64,000 nucleotides of DNA from contig JAHRWA010000033.1 in assembly GCA_019090455.1 (NCBI GenBank), forward strand, positions 1 to 64,000. Direction: 5' to 3'. Shown here piece by piece: positions 27,777 through 33,974 of the stretch. Source of the stretch: Pseudomonadales bacterium (GTDB lineage Bacteria; Pseudomonadota; Gammaproteobacteria; Pseudomonadales; DC-out160). The translations under genes were made by a program, and so were the position numbers. The stretch's first letter is position 1, and each line of letters starts with the position of its first letter. The notes below the pieces were generated by a model. That model saw nothing but the letters and a program-made list of their open reading frames with translations. It searched no databases and was not told where the DNA came from.

Positions 27777-28199
27777 TCATTCCTCAACGGCCTGATTAAA
27801 ATTATGTAAAGATCTCAAGAATAACCCAATCCCCCCAACCAACAAGACCAATATTACAATGAGATCGAAGGCGCTCATGCTCGCCATTCGAAATTGTATC
27901 GATGAGATGACACCAAAGACCAGCGCTGCTAACGAACCCACTGAGAGCAACCAACCAATAACATTACGAGAATTATAAAAAATCATCCCAACGCCGAACA
28001 TAAAGGGGATCATTATCATACCTGAGGAAATAGAAAACCCACCACCAAACCGATACAGTGAATACCCCATACCAAAATTAGTCGTCACTCTGATGGCGTT
28101 AAACAGCATATAGCCGCCTCCGCACATCATCAGAAACCCCATCATGAATTGTCCTACACCACCTTCAGTACCACCTGCGCCCTTTACTTTTACTTTCAC
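27777..28199 (-). CDS. Four-helix inner-membrane protein at the end of the PspA-like operon
   Basis: The 140-residue product has a short basic Gly-rich N-terminus (VKVKGAGGTEGG) and about four hydrophobic segments (about 16-36, 52-75, 79-100, 110-132), with a glycine-rich core (CGGGYMLF, FGGGFSISSGM). I do not recognise the family. It lies 27 bp downstream of the YjfC-like gene in the same direction, making it the last gene of the eight-gene unit, so a role in the same envelope process is likely. Confidence 0.65.
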   Translation of the reverse strand: MKVKVKGAGGTEGGVGQFMMGFLMMCGGGYMLFNAIRVTTNFGMGYSLYRFGGGFSISSGMIMIPFMFGVGMIFYNSRNVIGWLLSVGSLAALVFGVISSIQFRMASMSAFDLIVILVLLVGGIGLFLRSLHNFNQAVEE

Positions 28200-28226
28200 A
28201 ATGGTGTTCCCCGAATAGTTAGTTCT

Positions 28227-29393
28227 TTAGTATTGGATGATATGAGGTAGATATCGAGACATATCTTGCGTCACTAGGCTTTTGTCTTCTCGCATGGAAA
28301 TACCCGCCGGCTTGTCATTCACAAGCCAAGATCCGATTAAGGTGTAGTTATCACCAAACTGAGGTAGCGGGTGATAAGCTTGAATAATATAACCTTCCTT
28401 ACCATAAGGCCCCGGTACTTCTCGGGTACATTTGCCATTTCTAAAGACGGAGATATTTGCCCCTTCTCTCGAAAAAATAGGTTTCTTCACATAGTCTTTT
28501 AAATCATTAACCCGCGCATCACCTTCAAAATAAGCGGGCAATAAATTAGGGTGATTCGGAAACAGCTCCCACAACAACGGTAATAATGCTTTATTGGAGA
28601 GAATAGACTTCCAAAGGGGTTCTAGCCAACAGGTTTCATTCTTTCCGATAAGAGGGCCGAACTCCTCGTGCATCATAAACTCCCAGGGATATAGCTTAAA
28701 TATCCACGTGACAATGACATCATCCTTATCCGTGAACTCGCCAGACTGGGTACGCCCAATATCTTCTATATAAACAAATTTACAGGTAATCCCGGCTTGC
28801 ACCGCACAATCTTTCAAATACTCAACGGTACCAAAATCTTCTTCGGTATCTTTGCAGCAGGCAAAATGCAGTGTTTCATTGAAATGTGTTTGTGCGAGAA
28901 AGTGAAACCTCTCCACTAATTTATCCTGAAGGGAATTAAATTGGTCGGCATTACGACTGATATGGCCGCTTCTTGCATTATCGGCTAACCACAGCCATTG
29001 CCAAAAGCCCGTCTCATAGACGCTCGTTGGGGTATCAGCATTATTTTCATATAACTTCGCAGGACCTTGGCCATCGTAGGCAAGGTCAATTCGAGAATAT
29101 AAACTAGGATCTTTTCGCCCCCAGGAATCTGAAATACTTTGCCAATAGGAGGGGGGGATTTGAAATTTCCTTAATAGCTCATCGTTGCCAACAACTCTAT
29201 CCACAACGGCTAAACACATCTGATGAATTTCTTCAGTCGGGTCTTCAATATCCTCTTCAATTTGCTTTAAGGTAAACTGGTAGTAAGCTGATTCATCCCA
29301 GTAAGGTTCACCGTACATAGTGTGAAAATTGAAACCGTATTCCGATGCTTGTTGTCGCCAGTGAGATCTTTCAGGAATAGGCATTCGTAACAT
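28227..29393 (-). CDS. yjfC: YjfC/YgiC-type glutathionylspermidine synthase-like ATP-grasp enzyme
   Basis: The 388-residue product matches the synthetase half of glutathionylspermidine synthase/amidase: EYGFNFHTMYGEPYW near the N-terminus, ENNADTPTSVYETGFWQW, NKALLPLLWELFPNHPNLLPA, and the C-terminal KPIFSREGANISV and SWLVNDKPAGISMRED, an ATP-grasp fold for peptide-amine ligation. The amidase half is absent, as in YjfC and YgiC. Its true substrate is unknown. It lies 3 bp after the YgiB-like gene; the same pair occurs in E. coli ygiBC. Confidence 0.88.
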   Translation of the reverse strand: MLRMPIPERSHWRQQASEYGFNFHTMYGEPYWDESAYYQFTLKQIEEDIEDPTEEIHQMCLAVVDRVVGNDELLRKFQIPPSYWQSISDSWGRKDPSLYSRIDLAYDGQGPAKLYENNADTPTSVYETGFWQWLWLADNARSGHISRNADQFNSLQDKLVERFHFLAQTHFNETLHFACCKDTEEDFGTVEYLKDCAVQAGITCKFVYIEDIGRTQSGEFTDKDDVIVTWIFKLYPWEFMMHEEFGPLIGKNETCWLEPLWKSILSNKALLPLLWELFPNHPNLLPAYFEGDARVNDLKDYVKKPIFSREGANISVFRNGKCTREVPGPYGKEGYIIQAYHPLPQFGDNYTLIGSWLVNDKPAGISMREDKSLVTQDMSRYLPHIIQY

Positions 29394-29396
29394 GAA

Positions 29397-30074
29397 CTAA
29401 CCGCCCCAACCTGATGACCTGCTACCAGACCAAGAAGATGCCGCCGCTGCGCGACTACCAAAACCGCCTCTAGACATGGTTTTAGTCACCGTTGGTTTTT
29501 TCTGGAAATCTCCGCTTCTCGCTCGGACGCTAGAGTTATAGCGACTGCCGTAATCTCGGCCACCAGCACCTACCCAATTTCCGTAATAAGGGCTATGACG
29601 CGAATAGGAGGTGAACATGGGGTTATAGCTATAGCGACCGCCATTCAACATGCTACCTATCATGTAGCCGGCCATCATCGGCATAAACACACCCGATGAA
29701 GAATGGCGACGGCAACGATCATAACCAAACTCATCCTCACAGTCTCTCTGTGAGTTGTACTTTGGAGCGGTACGTTCAGCTTCTTTCTCTGCATTCTCAT
29801 AGGCAATTTGACAAGCTTCTGCTTGTCCTGGATTGCTATCCTTACAATCCTCAACCGACCGATAGACAGCTGCCTCTTCGCTATCACTACTACAACCCGC
29901 CATTGAAAAGGTTGCAACAACAGCGACACTCAATGAACTGCGTGTAGCTGAAACTTTCTTGTGGCTCTCTACTTTGTCATGATTCTCAACATTCCGACAC
30001 GTATCTAAATTTGTATCACAAAGCGCATCTGACTTACGCATTGTCTCTAAATTAATGGACTTTGAACGTTTCAT
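29397..30074 (-). CDS. ygiB: DUF1190 (YgiB/YjfM-like) lipoprotein
   Basis: The 225-residue product has the family's characteristic opening MKRSKSINL, a long polar insert, then a hydrophobic stretch with lipobox FSMAGC (about residue 60), the YRSVEDCKDSNPG segment, APKYNSQRDCEDEFG, a hydrophobic FMPMMAGYMIGSMLNGG and a Ser/Gly/Arg-rich C-terminus with the SRGGFGSR motif. This fits DUF1190 (YgiB). The role is unknown, but it is coupled to the ATP-grasp gene 3 bp downstream and belongs to a PspA-like operon. The signal sequence sits unusually far from the start. Confidence 0.82.
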   Translation of the reverse strand: MKRSKSINLETMRKSDALCDTNLDTCRNVENHDKVESHKKVSATRSSLSVAVVATFSMAGCSSDSEEAAVYRSVEDCKDSNPGQAEACQIAYENAEKEAERTAPKYNSQRDCEDEFGYDRCRRHSSSGVFMPMMAGYMIGSMLNGGRYSYNPMFTSYSRHSPYYGNWVGAGGRDYGSRYNSSVRARSGDFQKKPTVTKTMSRGGFGSRAAAASSWSGSRSSGWGG

Positions 30075-30090
30075 CTATACAGTGCCTCCA

Positions 30091-30504
30091 TTAATAAGTC
30101 ATGCACGCAGCATTGAGAATACCCACAGCAACGGAAATGCCGCCTAACATAATACCCGCAGAAATTTCATCGTCATTAATTCTCGCGGAGATTTTTGGCA
30201 TGATGCCCCGCACGATTAAGAATGCAATAACCTGAGCCACTAGAGCGATAACACCCCAAATACCGAAATCGACGAAATCTACCGAATTGGCAGCAGCACC
30301 TCCCAAAGCCAAACAGAATCCGACGATAGCACCCACAAAAGCACAGGCCGCAGCGATACTTTTATTTTCCTTGATTAAGGTAAATTCATTATGGGGAGTT
30401 ATAGCAGAGTAAACGAACTTAAAGATAACTAACAAAATTAAAGACAGGCCGAAATAAATGGCGAAGTCGCCTAGACCTTCGAGTGAATCCTGCAGGCTTT
30501 CCAT
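30091..30504 (-). CDS. yjfL: DUF350 inner-membrane protein (YjfL-like)
   Basis: The 137-residue product has about four hydrophobic helices: FAIYFGLSLILLVIFKFVYS, a helix with AACAFVGAIVGFCLAL, VDFGIWGVIALVAQVIAFLIVRG, and a C-terminal GISVAVGILNAAC segment. The pattern matches DUF350 proteins of YjfL type. These neighbour PspA homologues in many bacteria; their action is unknown. It lies 78 bp after the YjfK-like gene and 17 bp before the YgiB-like gene. Confidence 0.8.
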   Translation of the reverse strand: MESLQDSLEGLGDFAIYFGLSLILLVIFKFVYSAITPHNEFTLIKENKSIAAACAFVGAIVGFCLALGGAAANSVDFVDFGIWGVIALVAQVIAFLIVRGIMPKISARINDDEISAGIMLGGISVAVGILNAACMTY

Positions 30505-30581
30505 TGATTGCTCCTTTTTTACTTTTAGATGGGTATATAAATAGAATTAGGAAAATGATTCAGGTGGTATTTAAGGTTTAA

Positions 30582-31226
30582 CTATCCACGCACAGAAATA
30601 TCACTATGCCTCAAAGGTATGCCGGTGCTAATAACCAAGCAACGCTCAAGACGATTATCCACAACAATCTCCTCACCGGACACTAACAGTAATTCCTTCA
30701 AATCATCATTAATGACTCGCTCATAAAGCATCATAAATTGATCCGTATTCGTGGTTTCACCTTCATCATCATAGGTCTTTTCCGTCATCGCAACTGGAGG
30801 GCAACTGCCCGACACATCATTCCAGACTCGCAGGTATTGATTACCCTCAATCTCATAGCTGGGCTGTGAAATTAATTGACTGATCTGTTCATCCCAAGCG
30901 GCATCAGTACTGATACCTTTTGTGTCGTAATAATGCCATAGGCTGACATCGTCAATATTAGATTCTTCCTGACCGCCTGAAAGATTCAGTTGTACGAAGC
31001 CCTCATCATCAGTATAAAAACGAAATAGTGTTGTGTTGTGATCTAGCTTTACTTCCCCTGACGCTTCAATAAATTGGGTCCGAGCAATCTTATCTACAAT
31101 AAGATCCGATTCAATCAACTTTAATCTGAGATCATCTAGTTCGAACGCACTGCCCACCCGCAAGCCTATAATATCGGGACCTATATCTGTAGGATCTTCA
31201 TTTTTCCCAAACCATTTTTTAAACAC
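30582..31226 (-). CDS. yjfK: DUF2491 protein (YjfK-like)
   Basis: I place the start at the GTG at 31226 (214 residues, VFKKWFGKNED) because GGGAGG lies about 6 bases upstream and the family starts this way; the longer frame to 31268 runs back into the channel gene. Start and channel stop overlap by 8 bp (GTGTTTAA). The sequence has DIIGLRVGSAFELDDLRLKL and the C-terminal ERCLVISTGIPLR typical of DUF2491. It is soluble, without membrane segments. Function unknown; a steady partner of YjfJ/PspA. Confidence 0.78.
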   Translation of the reverse strand: MFKKWFGKNEDPTDIGPDIIGLRVGSAFELDDLRLKLIESDLIVDKIARTQFIEASGEVKLDHNTTLFRFYTDDEGFVQLNLSGGQEESNIDDVSLWHYYDTKGISTDAAWDEQISQLISQPSYEIEGNQYLRVWNDVSGSCPPVAMTEKTYDDEGETTNTDQFMMLYERVINDDLKELLLVSGEEIVVDNRLERCLVISTGIPLRHSDISVRG

Positions 31227-32268
31227 CGAACGCCTCCCAATCAATATGATGAATACGATTCTTCGCAATATAATAAATAGTTGAACCTTCCCTCACCATG
31301 CTATCAAGTGATGGATTGAGTTTAAGAGTATCCGCACCCTCTTCCGTCGCGGTGGCGATTAGCGTCGCATCATAGCGTTGTTTGAAATCAACAAACATAG
31401 ATTTTATAGAAATGGGTTTACAGTTGCTAGGTAGGACCGCGGAGAACTGGGTCATGCCGTCAGAGGCATTTAATAACCGCTGATGAAGCACGCTAGATCC
31501 TCTATCCACAGCAGCTTTCGCCATCATTTCAACAGAAACCGACGGTGTAACTTCGATACTAGGACAATGCTTTTTTAAGATAGAGGTGAGCTTTTCGTTA
31601 TCAAAATAGACAATGGTGTGTGCGAGGTGATTAACGCCGTTACAATATAATGCGGAAGTCATGCTTTCTTCGTCAGTTGCATTGTCGATAACAATACAGG
31701 CTGCCTTGACGACACAGGCATGGTTCATCCCCTCATCGTCGCTAAAGCTATCCACTTTTACGAATTGTATCTCCTGCGGAAAAGGGTTTTCCATTTCATC
31801 AGCCACACACAAGACAATGGGCCTCTGTATCGTATGTAAGGACTCTTCCTTTAGCAGTAACCTCACCAATCTAATGGTCCGCTTATCGTTACAGCCTAAC
31901 ACCAGAATGTGCCCTTCAATATCGAGCGGCTTCAAACCCATTATCCCTTTTCTCCAAATAAAAGCAGCATAAGCGGCAATTCTCCCCACCGCAACCGCAA
32001 ACAAGCTTAACCCGAAAGGGATAACAAATAGTGTAGTAACATATTTCCCCGCTAATGTACTGGGTGACAAATCACCATATCCCACTGTAGACGCAGTAAC
32101 AATTAGCCAATAGGGAAAACTTGAACCAATCAGTTCAGTTTCATTACTTAAATAGAGGGCTAACCACGAAGTGGCCATATAAAAAAATAGCACCAGTACC
32201 AAAGTGGACCAGTGCATATCGACGAAATACTTTAATAGTATTTTTTTAAGCAGAACCGTTACATGCAT
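31219..32268 (-). CDS. Two-helix potassium channel with RCK/TrkA-N domain
   Basis: Kch-like channel of 349 residues: a membrane helix (about 22-40), a pore helix with selectivity filter TVGYGD (about 60-66), a second helix (about 77-98), then two cytoplasmic RCK-like parts (about 118-349) beginning GHILVLGCNDKRTIRLV, a Rossmann-type nucleotide-binding loop. Ligand gating by the RCK ring is the family rule. Its stop overlaps the YjfK start, and it lies 11 bp after the PspA-like gene, so ion flux through it is tied to a membrane-stress operon. E. coli yjfIJKL has no such gene between yjfJ and yjfK. Confidence 0.9.
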   Translation of the reverse strand: MHVTVLLKKILLKYFVDMHWSTLVLVLFFYMATSWLALYLSNETELIGSSFPYWLIVTASTVGYGDLSPSTLAGKYVTTLFVIPFGLSLFAVAVGRIAAYAAFIWRKGIMGLKPLDIEGHILVLGCNDKRTIRLVRLLLKEESLHTIQRPIVLCVADEMENPFPQEIQFVKVDSFSDDEGMNHACVVKAACIVIDNATDEESMTSALYCNGVNHLAHTIVYFDNEKLTSILKKHCPSIEVTPSVSVEMMAKAAVDRGSSVLHQRLLNASDGMTQFSAVLPSNCKPISIKSMFVDFKQRYDATLIATATEEGADTLKLNPSLDSMVREGSTIYYIAKNRIHHIDWEAFGV

Positions 32269-32279
32269 GCTTATATCAT

Positions 32280-32969
32280 CTATTTCTTACCTAGAATTCG
32301 GGCAAGTTCATCTTCCGCTGATGAAGTGCCACCAGAAACAATGCCTGCTGACTTAAGCTTTTCATCCAAGTCTGAGCCTGACTCTGCATTAGCCAACTCT
32401 TCTGCAGCCTCGAAAGTGGCTTGCTGCTCTACTTGCCTCTTTTCAATTCGCTCCATGGATTCTAATGCTGTTTTCATTTTTGAATTAGCACCCGTATGAC
32501 GACTTGAACAAGCTGCTTGGGCTTTATTGACCGCTTCAGTCGCCTTGATATGGTCCACTTTCTGCTTCATTTGCTTCAGGCTTTTCTTAGCCTTGTCAAT
32601 ATTCGCCTTGAGAGTAGATTCTGATTGTTTAAAAGTCGCCAAATACTGCTGCTCGGCATCGAGATCTGCCCGCAATTGACCCACTTTCGTAGCACACTCT
32701 AATGCCAAATCAGAATCACCCTTCTCCGCCGAGGAGCGAGCATGATTCTCATATTCAGTCGCTGATTTTTCTAGTTCAGCCACTTTGCTGGCTGACATTT
32801 TACGCTTAGCCATCACGGAAGTTAACGACTGTTCCGCTTTCTTTAATTCTTCACCAGCATCACGAATTTCCTGATCCAGAATTCTTAACGCTTGATTGTC
32901 GACTATGGCTTCACCAACTTCAGTAGCGCCACCACGCATTGCTGTTACAATTTTGCTCCAAACACTCAT
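32280..32969 (-). CDS. yjfJ: PspA/IM30-family protein (YjfJ-like)
   Basis: The 229-residue protein is almost wholly helical and coiled-coil-forming, rich in Ala, Glu and Lys (LDQEIRDAGEELKKAEQSLTSVMAKRK near the start, a KKSLKQMKQKVDHIK helix later). This matches the ESCRT-III-like PspA/IM30 fold that coats damaged inner membrane. It lies 12 bp after the YjfI-like gene. The neighbours and the Ser/Glu-rich C-terminus point to the YjfJ branch rather than classical PspA; no pspBC or pspF is nearby. Confidence 0.9.
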   Translation of the reverse strand: MSVWSKIVTAMRGGATEVGEAIVDNQALRILDQEIRDAGEELKKAEQSLTSVMAKRKMSASKVAELEKSATEYENHARSSAEKGDSDLALECATKVGQLRADLDAEQQYLATFKQSESTLKANIDKAKKSLKQMKQKVDHIKATEAVNKAQAACSSRHTGANSKMKTALESMERIEKRQVEQQATFEAAEELANAESGSDLDEKLKSAGIVSGGTSSAEDELARILGKK

Positions 32970-32981
32970 AATAATTTCCTC

Positions 32982-33371
32982 TTACTTAAGATGATCCCTA
33001 TAGGCTTCCAGAAAATCTGGAACATTTTGAAATAAGGTTTCAACTTCAATATTAATTGTCTCTGCTTTGGATTCCGACGATAAAGCCCCGAAAGCAAGAT
33101 AATAATCCGTACCATCGATTTCACTTACGCAAATTGATGATAGAGGCAGTAGTTGATGGGTTTTTAAAATTTCAGCGTTTAGCACATTGACGTCACTTAC
33201 ACTTGACGCTGCAAATAATGAAACTTCCATTACTATCTGTGATCCACACACTGAAACAAAAGCATCAACACCGTCTTCATTTGTAACGATTAAACACTCC
33301 CCCTCTTTACTAACCACAAATGTATTATCTTCGCCAAACACGCCTGACAGTGAGTTAATATCCCATGCCAT
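32982..33371 (-). CDS. yjfI: DUF2170 protein (YjfI-like), first gene of the PspA-like operon
   Basis: The 129-residue soluble protein opens MAWDINSLSGVF and contains CSQ-like strands and the DGTDYYLAFGALSS stretch typical of DUF2170 (YjfI). Its function is unknown. It is the promoter-proximal gene of the operon; a 17-bp perfect palindrome lies 26 bp upstream of its start codon, and a divergent DUF6471 gene shares the control region. Confidence 0.8.
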   Translation of the reverse strand: MAWDINSLSGVFGEDNTFVVSKEGECLIVTNEDGVDAFVSVCGSQIVMEVSLFAASSVSDVNVLNAEILKTHQLLPLSSICVSEIDGTDYYLAFGALSSESKAETINIEVETLFQNVPDFLEAYRDHLK

Positions 33372-33677
33372 GGAATCTCTCCTTAATTGAAATGATATAA
33401 AGCATTGCTTTATGTGTTAATAATATTCGCATGATTGATTATCGTCAAGTATTATTGATTATATTCAGTCAATAGTGACCATTAAAAATGTAGCCGTATG
33501 TAATTGGTGTCTTTTTTGGAAACACTTTTACAATCGGAAATTATATCAACTGATTGAGTTAGACTTGTCACTACTCTTTCAAAATCTATAGTTCTTGAAA
33601 TAGACTACAGAATATAGCTGATCAACTAAAACTAATCGCCATTTTTAATATTTAAGCGATCCTAGGAACCACTCACT
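33372..33677. promoter_or_regulatory. Divergent control region of the PspA-like operon, with operator-like sites
   Basis: This 306-bp gap lies between the YjfI-like and DUF6471 genes. It has a perfect palindrome ATAAAGCA-T-TGCTTTAT at 33397-33413, close to the YjfI start, and two exact ATTGATTAT direct repeats at 33434-33442 and 33454-33462, spaced 20 bp (two helical turns). Both are operator-like. No clear sigma54 -24/-12 pair of the classical psp type was found. The right half shows nothing else recognisable. Confidence 0.5.
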
Positions 33678-33974
33678 ATGAGCCAACATCCAGAAAACCA
33701 ACAGACATGGGATCAGCAAACTTGGAGAAAGCTAGCAAAAAGGCTGATCAGTACGCAAATGAAGAAGCGTGACGTAAAATATGAGATGCTAAGTCAACGA
33801 CTAGCAACGTTAGGGATAAAACAATCGGCAAGCAATCTAAGCACCAAAGTCAGTACAGGTGTACTCGGCGCAGACTTACTGCTTGCCATTTTGTTTGCAC
33901 TCGATTTTAAGCAGCTCACCGCAAACGATATTGAAGACGTCCTCCAAGACATCGGAGTTGATACGAACACTTAG
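33678..33974 (+). CDS. DUF6471 (HTH-like) protein, divergent from the PspA-like operon
   Basis: The 98-residue product is a small helical protein with the pattern W-K-LAKRLISTQMKKRDVKYEMLSQRL, then NLSTKVSTGVLGADLLLAILFALD, typical of DUF6471. That domain looks like a Cro/XRE-type helix-turn-helix with a recognition segment around NLSTKVSTG. It may regulate the divergent operon through the repeats in the shared spacer; that is inference. The def gene follows 73 bp downstream in the same direction. Confidence 0.65.
   Translation: MSQHPENQQTWDQQTWRKLAKRLISTQMKKRDVKYEMLSQRLATLGIKQSASNLSTKVSTGVLGADLLLAILFALDFKQLTANDIEDVLQDIGVDTNT

What the first reader, a model, noticed from the sequence alone, without database searches (positions are those of the whole stretch)
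27777..33974. PspA-like envelope operon with an embedded K+ channel and an unknown membrane protein
Seen: minus-strand order YjfI, YjfJ(PspA), two-helix K+ channel with RCK domain, YjfK, YjfL, YgiB, YjfC ATP-grasp, then a four-helix protein I do not recognise; tight spacing and one 8-bp overlap. Established: E. coli yjfIJKLMC encodes similar parts but lacks the channel. Inference: the channel's nucleotide-gated K+ flux may report or relieve membrane stress, with the ATP-grasp enzyme modifying a polyamine-like partner. DUF6471 divergent gene may be the regulator.
Basis: partly seen in the sequence, partly recalled or inferred. Interest (0 to 1): 0.58.

Follow-up and report, generated by a model that had tools for sequence, protein, structure and literature searches.

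The report
Polyamine-linked membrane-repair operon with potassium channel
The stretch is a real eight-gene operon that joins a membrane-repair protein, a potassium channel and a spermidine-attaching enzyme; the gene set was already described in 2024, but a few E. coli strains turn out to keep the channel that K-12 lacks, and one operon protein ends in a tail that looks like the place where spermidine is attached.

Summary
In detail: minus-strand yjfI–yjfJ(PspA)–2TM/RCK K+ channel–yjfK–yjfL–ygiB–yjfC–4TM gene, an exact 8-bp channel/yjfK overlap, and a divergent DUF6471 gene. Without the last gene the set is the third CesT/Tir–PspA operon group of Ravi et al. 2024, so it is not a new system. Added here: (1) the channel lies directly upstream of yjfK in 24 of 35 DUF2491 loci drawn without regard to the channel. 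(2) "E. coli lacks the channel" holds for K-12, not for the species: 13 of 5,426 complete genomes carry it between yjfJ and yjfK. (3) The DUF1190 protein ends in Gly-Gly in 64 of 75 loci with an ATP-grasp gene nearby (shuffled tails: mean 3.6, maximum 10); E. coli YgiB and YjfM do too. I predict that YjfC/YgiC attach spermidine to this C-terminus. That is inference; lipoprotein topology argues against it unless it happens before export. (4) DUF6471 is single-copy and divergently adjacent in 11 of 13 positive genomes, hence the likely regulator. (5) The 4TM gene appears to be a genus-level addition, not a core part. The proposed nucleotide gating has no specific support.

The parts
32982..33371 (-). 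yjfI (DUF2170, CesT/Tir-like chaperone family)
   Evidence: PF09938 1.7e-35; NCBIfam BacA 3.5e-23, below its cut-off
32280..32969 (-). yjfJ (PspA/IM30 family), the only PF04012 match in the genome as held
   Evidence: PF04012 8.5e-38; one match in the own genome, 98% complete
31219..32268 (-). 2TM potassium channel (filter TVGYGD) with RCK-like cytoplasmic domain
   Evidence: PF07885 9.2e-12; aligns to MthK over residues 52-336; alignment A2 of 19
30582..31226 (-). yjfK (DUF2491), GTG start, overlaps the channel gene by 8 bp
   Evidence: PF10679 1.5e-74; sequence
30091..30504 (-). yjfL (DUF350, membrane protein)
   Evidence: PF03994 1.4e-37
29397..30074 (-). ygiB/yjfM (DUF1190) with lipobox-like motif MAGC and C-terminus GWGG; proposed spermidine acceptor
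   Evidence: PF06693 1.2e-50; C-terminus survey
28227..29393 (-). yjfC/ygiC (ATP-grasp, peptide-spermidine ligase homologue)
   Evidence: PF03738 6e-157; 58% identical to E. coli YgiC, 52% to YjfC; PDB YgiC 1.6e-162
27777..28199 (-). four-helix membrane protein without a family; genus-level addition to the operon
   Evidence: no family over cut-off; same place after yjfC in the second genome of the genus (L011); no operon gene in the short flanks of five other genomes
33678..33974 (+). DUF6471 protein, divergent; probable regulator
   Evidence: PF20075 1.3e-20; divergent neighbour of yjfI in 11 of 13 positive genomes
33420..33448 (-). sigma-70-like promoter TTGACG-17-TATTAT upstream of yjfI
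   Evidence: the scan of the whole region found 15 such sites against 15.0 in shuffles, so one site alone means little; the same kind of element upstream of yjfI in 10 of 34 loci against 0.55 expected

Best explanation
This is a membrane-maintenance operon in which a PspA/ESCRT-III-like coat protein (YjfJ) with its CesT/Tir-like partner (YjfI) works with a gated K+ channel, a DUF350 membrane protein, a DUF2491 protein and a polyamine arm. Shown by sequence: the genes, their order, their repeated linkage in distant genomes, the intact K+ filter, and a conserved Gly-Gly C-terminus on DUF1190. Inferred: YjfC, like E. coli YgiC/YjfC, joins spermidine to a peptide C-terminus, and its natural acceptor is the Gly-Gly end of the DUF1190 protein made just upstream. 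The basic, Ser/Gly/Arg-rich, spermidine-capped tail would bind anionic membrane or cell-wall surfaces. The channel would let K+ move when its RCK-like domain binds an unknown ligand, offsetting charge or turgor when the membrane is disturbed or polyamine levels shift. DUF6471 probably controls a sigma-70 promoter in the divergent region. My confidence by step: operon identity 0.95; channel a working member 0.85; DUF6471 the regulator 0.6; spermidine on DUF1190 0.4; the K+/polyamine coupling 0.25.
For: Operon and order. Channel directly upstream of DUF2491 and on the same strand in 24 of 35 loci found with DUF2491 alone. In all 9 loci of other classes that have the yjfI-yjfJ pair (L065-L073) the pair is divergent from yjfK-yjfL-ygiB, and the channel stays with yjfK in 6 of those 9. 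Co-occurrence in 369 genomes p = 2e-10. Pairwise distances of the channel correlate with those of five other operon genes at 0.62-0.77 over 25 loci (species relatedness not removed). Same site in 13 of 5,426 E. coli (three opened). DUF1190 ends in GG in 64 of 75 loci with an ATP-grasp gene in the fetched stretch; tail shuffles mean 3.6, maximum 10 in 2,000 runs. By context: 30 of 35 DUF2491 operons, 10 of 15 with DUF350 but no DUF2491, 24 of 25 bare DUF1190+ATP-grasp pairs, 2 of 9 without an ATP-grasp in the stretch. None of the six other core families (YjfI, J, K, L, C, channel) has a GG end in any of 28-75 members. E. coli YgiB ends SMGG and YjfM ends HWGG. YjfC is 58% identical to E. coli YgiC. 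Precedent: spermidine joined to the Gly-Gly end of SUMO (PMC12270671, passages). The own genome has Spermine_synth matches (best 1.3e-51) and one partial AdoMet_dc match (7e-7).
Against: 11 of 75 linked DUF1190 proteins end otherwise (GS, SS, AT, GT), and all three members of one family (f4: G349, G639, G720) end GS. DUF1190 has a lipobox or N-terminal anchor in most rows, so its C-terminus should lie outside the cytosol where YjfC is expected. YjfK ends in a single Gly in 19 of 41 and could be an acceptor. Of the 9 loci without a linked ATP-grasp, 7 are very divergent DUF1190 relatives, so that contrast is confounded. 7 of 31 operons with the yjfIJ pair lack the channel there; only one of those 7 genomes (G639) has a close full-length channel elsewhere. 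The channel also occurs alone (L006-L008; Salinivibrio; G059). Nothing measured links K+ to the other parts.
Confidence: 0.5

Rival explanations
1. The ATP-grasp enzyme makes a free peptide-polyamine metabolite, as glutathionylspermidine and trypanothione synthetases do, and the DUF1190 protein is only its binder or partner; the GG end is a structural feature.
For: Outside YgiC/YjfC the solved homologues are trypanothione synthetase and glutathionylspermidine synthetase. DUF1190 topology puts its C-terminus outside the cytosol. Ravi et al. call DUF1190 a metal-chelating lipoprotein.
Against: The GG is fixed at the very C-terminus, not spread along the Gly-rich tail, and is kept in 24 of 25 bare DUF1190+ATP-grasp pairs, where neither DUF2491 nor DUF350 is in the fetched stretch.
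Confidence: 0.35
2. The channel is a passenger: a generic K+ channel that settled beside yjfK and is freely lost and gained, with no role in the Psp-like system.
For: It occurs alone (L006-L008; Salinivibrio; G059), is missing from 7 of 31 yjfIJ-containing operons, and 5,114 of 5,426 E. coli have the channel-less junction.
Against: 24 of 35 loci keep it directly upstream of yjfK on the same strand, often overlapping. It stays with yjfK-yjfL-ygiB in 6 of 9 loci where yjfIJ is on the other strand. Co-occurrence p = 2e-10.
Confidence: 0.15
3. YjfK (DUF2491), whose C-terminus is often a single Gly, is the spermidine acceptor instead of DUF1190.
For: 19 of 41 YjfK proteins end in G, including the window (VRG) and E. 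coli K-12 (IIG); no signal peptide is apparent to the eye in the aligned starts, so it may be in the cytosol with YjfC.
Against: 22 of 41 do not end in Gly, and no DUF2491 gene was found in the fetched stretch of 40 of 75 ATP-grasp-linked loci (25 bare, 15 with DUF350), so it is unlikely to be the general acceptor.
Confidence: 0.1

Closest known systems
Third group of CesT/Tir-PspA operons, Ravi et al. 2024 (PMC11237479, section 19)
   Same: CesT/Tir(DUF2170)-PspA pair, GspS-like ATP-grasp, K+ channel with intracellular ligand sensing, DUF350, DUF1190, DUF2491: all present here
   Different: That section names no 4TM gene at the end, no DUF6471 gene, no GG end of DUF1190 and no E. coli strains that keep the channel (its tables and figures were not seen)
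E. coli K-12 yjfIJKLMC
   Same: Same genes in the same order
   Different: K-12 has a 50-bp junction with a hairpin where the channel lies; 13 of 5,426 E. coli have the channel there
E. coli ygiBC
   Same: DUF1190 with GG end plus ATP-grasp peptide-spermidine ligase; the window YjfC is nearer to YgiC (58%) than to YjfC (52%)
   Different: Two genes, next to tolC; no PspA, channel or DUF2491 in the stretch fetched
P. aeruginosa bacABCDEF (PMC10948618, passages)
   Same: DUF2170 protein followed by a PspA homologue at the head of a six-gene operon
   Different: A sigma-54 site is proposed there; here a sigma-70-like promoter and no match to my sigma-54 pattern. That paper finds no spermidine synthase homologue in or around it; I did not check its other genes
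MthK channel
   Same: 2TM pore plus RCK domain, aligned over residues 52-336
   Different: The Ca2+ ligand residues of MthK (recalled) are not kept as a set

Membership tests
Ravi 2024 third-group CesT/Tir-PspA operon | CesT/Tir (DUF2170) gene next to a PspA gene | tested here: met
   PF09938 and PF04012, adjacent
Ravi 2024 third-group CesT/Tir-PspA operon | GspS-like ATP-grasp ligase | tested here: met
   PF03738 6e-157; PDB YgiC/YjfC
Ravi 2024 third-group CesT/Tir-PspA operon | K+ channel with intracellular ligand sensing | tested here: met
   PF07885 over cut-off; RCK part by alignment to MthK; Pfam TrkA_N itself below its cut-off; ligand binding not testable
Ravi 2024 third-group CesT/Tir-PspA operon | DUF350, DUF1190 and DUF2491 genes | tested here: met
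   all three far over cut-off
Canonical Psp response (PspA with sigma-54 control) | PspA equivalog score | tested here: not met
   TIGR02977 19.1 bits against a cut-off of 242.95; PF04012 is met
Canonical Psp response (PspA with sigma-54 control) | sigma-54 promoter upstream | tested here: not met
   no match to one typed pattern in 300 bp upstream of yjfI in 34 loci; sigma-70 type in 10 of 34. In several loci the yjfI start was set too far upstream, so sites there may be missed
Canonical Psp response (PspA with sigma-54 control) | pspB, pspC, pspF in the genome | not tested
Peptide-spermidine ligase (YgiC/YjfC) | full-length homology to YgiC/YjfC | tested here: met
   58% and 52% identity end to end
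Peptide-spermidine ligase (YgiC/YjfC) | ATP-dependent joining of spermidine to a peptide | not testable with these tools
   needs an enzyme assay; the paper that reports it for E. coli is not held
MthK-type Ca2+-gated channel | 2TM K+ pore with TVGYGD plus RCK domain | tested here: met
MthK-type Ca2+-gated channel | Ca2+ ligands D184, E210, E212 (residue numbers recalled) | tested here: not met
   read by eye off the alignment: D184 aligns with Asp, E210 with Tyr, E212 with Asp; the Asp at the D184 position is not kept in all relatives
NAD-binding RCK/KTN domain | GxGxxG Rossmann motif (recalled) | tested here: not met
   window has GCNDKRT, many relatives GWxxxRT

The most novel reading that the evidence does not exclude
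Bacteria make a spermidine-capped lipoprotein: the ATP-grasp enzymes YjfC and YgiC attach spermidine to the C-terminal Gly-Gly of DUF1190 proteins before export, a bacterial parallel to spermidine on the Gly-Gly end of SUMO, and in the full operon this modification works together with a PspA coat and a K+ channel that E. coli K-12 does not have but some E. coli strains do.
Probability: 0.38. Interest if true: 0.78.

Novelty: new member of a known kind. Interest (0 to 1): 0.5.

Why it matters
YgiC/YjfC are annotated as peptide-spermidine ligases, but in the listings and passages I could see none names their natural acceptor. A tail that ends in Gly-Gly in 64 of 75 linked loci gives a named candidate that a mass-spectrometry run on a K-12 laboratory strain could test. 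The presence/absence of the channel within E. coli gives a ready-made comparison for what the channel adds to a Psp-like system.

Tried and rejected
Fold of YjfK: predicted from 5 sequences, mean pLDDT 57.9; Foldseek in PDB gave nothing at E <= 0.001, listed hits at TM-score near 0.2; no conclusion. A public AlphaFold model of E. coli YjfK is described as a small barrel, a 'primitive outer membrane porin', which membrane predictors did not confirm (PMC12492005, passages); I do not follow that reading, but have no test of it.

Fold of the 4TM protein: one sequence, pLDDT 63, four helices of 15 or more residues; not searched further. As a core part of the operon it was rejected: 6 of 369 class genomes have it, and apart from the window the short flanks (about 1.5 kb a side) of the other five hold none of the operon genes by my profiles; in G351 the operon lies on another contig. 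In L079 (G619) it lies about 1.6 kb from a weak DUF2491 relative, unexplained.

Sigma-54 control as in P. aeruginosa bac: no match to the pattern used in 34 upstream regions. MthK-like Ca2+ gating: ligand residues not kept as a set. A second polyamine-PspA operon in the own genome: the 574-aa spermine-synthase gene on contig C28 has no operon partners beside it by my profiles. Operator search: a palindrome-like TTGTGA...TTACAA element in several intergenic regions was seen by eye only and is not claimed.

Literature limits: Pederick et al. 2023 and Iyer et al. 2009 (the latter known to me by recall) are not held, so I cannot say whether either already names DUF1190 as acceptor. Paper searches made; two searches listed only 30 of 165 and 30 of 9,139 papers.
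Full report
What is there. The minus strand from 33371 to 27777 carries eight tightly spaced genes: yjfI, yjfJ (PspA family), a 2TM K+ channel with an RCK-like domain, yjfK, yjfL, ygiB/yjfM, yjfC/ygiC and a 140-aa four-helix membrane protein; a DUF6471 gene is divergent at 33678-33974. The channel stop and the yjfK GTG start overlap by exactly 8 bp. YjfJ is the only PF04012 match in this 5.55-Mb, 98% complete genome.

Is the channel a real member? I searched for DUF2491 alone, without regard to the channel: 8 of 369 class genomes and 31 of 397 phylum genomes (four genomes shared, so 35), plus one same-genus genome whose contig begins inside yjfK, left out as not assessable. In 24 of 35 loci the channel lies directly upstream of yjfK on the same strand. 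Of the 11 without it, 7 have the yjfI-yjfJ pair and 4 do not; one of those 7 genomes (G639) has a close full-length channel elsewhere, the others only weak or partial matches or none. Nine loci from other classes of the phylum have the yjfI-yjfJ pair (L065-L073); in all nine the pair is divergent from yjfK-yjfL-ygiB, and in six the channel stays with yjfK. In the reverse direction, 8 of 369 class genomes have the channel at E <= 1e-30, 6 of them beside DUF2491; one more (G248) has DUF6471, yjfI, yjfJ and the channel before its contig ends, and one (G059) has none of the other genes in the 13 kb fetched. The profile used there holds rows from the window and the other five of the six. Solo channels also occur in Neptuniibacter, Enterovibrio and Salinivibrio.

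E. coli. K-12 has yjfJ and yjfK separated by 50 bp; a 66-nt stretch around it folds as a hairpin (-18.6 kcal/mol, z -2.4). With the channel gene of the unnamed class genome G695 as query, 13 of 5,426 complete E. coli genomes match, and all 13 places lie on annotations of channel, yjfJ and yjfK; I opened three. There yjfJ and the channel share 1 bp and the channel and yjfK 4 bp. The channel-less junction is covered to at least 80% in 5,114 of 5,426; the other 299 genomes were not sorted. Identity of the three opened loci to K-12: yjfJ 91-92%, yjfK 94%, yjfM 94%, yjfC 94-95%, aidB 94-96%, rlmB 95-96%, yjfL 96-97%, rnr and yjfI 96-97%. The dip around the junction fits an old polymorphism or an import by recombination; I cannot tell which. 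The filter reads STLGFGD in the one E. coli channel I translated (L190). K-12 therefore lacks one part of the complete system.

The polyamine arm. The window YjfC is 58% identical to E. coli YgiC and 52% to YjfC, both annotated as peptide-spermidine ligases and both with solved structures. The related glutathionylspermidine synthetase acts on glutathione, which ends in Gly (recalled). I therefore looked at C-termini. All 73 DUF1190 places were taken, with 11 more: 84 loci, best DUF1190 frame per locus. Two further DUF1190-like frames in L133, neither ending GG, were dropped at this step; with them the count is 64 of 77. Of 75 loci with an ATP-grasp gene in the fetched stretch, 64 end in GG; position -2 is Gly in 70, and position -3 is most often W, F or M. 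Shuffling the last 30 residues gives 3.6 on average and at most 10 in 2,000 runs. The split is 30 of 35 in DUF2491 operons, 10 of 15 with DUF350 but no DUF2491, 24 of 25 in bare DUF1190+ATP-grasp pairs and 2 of 9 where no ATP-grasp was in the stretch. Of those two, L024 stops at a contig end and its genome has the enzyme on another contig; L005 could not be checked. The seven others are very divergent; three of their genomes (G444, G694, G740) have no ATP-grasp of this family, while G527 and G707 have one elsewhere. None of the six other core operon families has a GG end in any member counted. By a hand tally of the family labels, 20 of 21 families with linked pairs have at least one GG end; the exception (f4) ends GS. 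The loci are related to each other, many from one family (f183), so these counts are not independent events.

Against this reading: DUF1190 starts in most rows with a basic stretch and a lipobox or anchor, which should place its tail outside the cytosol, so modification would have to come before export. Eleven of 75 do not end GG. YjfK ends in a single Gly in 19 of 41 and is a weaker candidate.

Channel chemistry. In 19 aligned channels T61, G63, G65 and D66 of the filter are invariant and Y64 nearly so. The domain aligns with MthK, but of the recalled Ca2+ ligands only D184 is identical in the window, and that position varies among relatives. The NAD-type GxGxxG is absent.

Control. DUF6471 is over its cut-off in 13 of 36 genomes searched, once in each, and is the divergent neighbour of yjfI in 11; in G001 it lies near a contig end without yjfI on that contig, and in G618 it lies elsewhere. 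The class genome G248 and two named loci (L004, L009) show the same arrangement. A TTGACN - 16 to 18 bases - TANNNT element lies upstream of yjfI in 10 of 34 loci against 0.55 expected, and no sigma-54 pattern was found; all 10 loci also have DUF6471. Within the window alone promoter-like sites are no more frequent than in shuffles, and several yjfI starts were set too far upstream.

What is known. Ravi et al. 2024 (PMC11237479; section 19 read whole, passages) describe this gene set as the third group of CesT/Tir-PspA operons and propose that such systems monitor polyamine levels or aminopropylation to alter membranes. BacA work in P. aeruginosa (PMC10948618, passages) and heat-evolved E. coli with yjfIJKL up-regulated (PMC12492005, passages) touch the same families. 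E. coli YgiC is listed among proteins whose inner-membrane abundance changed in a Min mutant, with a cytoplasmic assignment (PMC4858940, passages), and ygiBC is listed with tolC as one operon (PMC2731931, passage). Spermidine on the GG end of SUMO is reported in PMC12270671 (passages). YgiC and YjfC are called peptidylpolyamine synthetases in PMC12568646 (passages). In the listings of my eight paper searches I saw no title or abstract start on spermidine attached to YgiB, YjfM or DUF1190; two relevant papers are not held.

Verdict. The operon is real and conserved but already described as a kind. The added value lies in the E. coli channel polymorphism, the acceptor prediction and the DUF6471 link. 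Interest 0.5.

Noticed in passing
L190:4976-6046 (E. coli 2020CK-00188) against L080:8253-8302 (K-12): Within-species presence/absence of the channel in E. coli: 13 of 5,426 genomes have it, 5,114 have a short hairpin junction instead, 299 not sorted.
   Followed up: partly
   Followed up: partly
L077:6022-7608 and L078:5787-7676: DUF2491 in much longer open frames followed by DUF350, without PspA or channel in the stretch; possibly fused or only upstream-extended frames.
   Followed up: no
DUF1190 tails listed: A second motif like SRGG[FY]G lies some 15-20 residues before the C-terminus and is kept in many tails that do not end in GG (by eye).
   Followed up: no
intergenic regions of L020, L053, L054, L055, L057-L059 printed: A palindrome-like TTGTGA...TTACAA element near the DUF6471 start, a possible operator; seen by eye.
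   Followed up: no
L176:7111-8835: The own genome has a 574-aa gene with a spermine-synthase domain, perhaps the membrane-fused kind, with no operon partner in the 16 kb fetched.
   Followed up: partly
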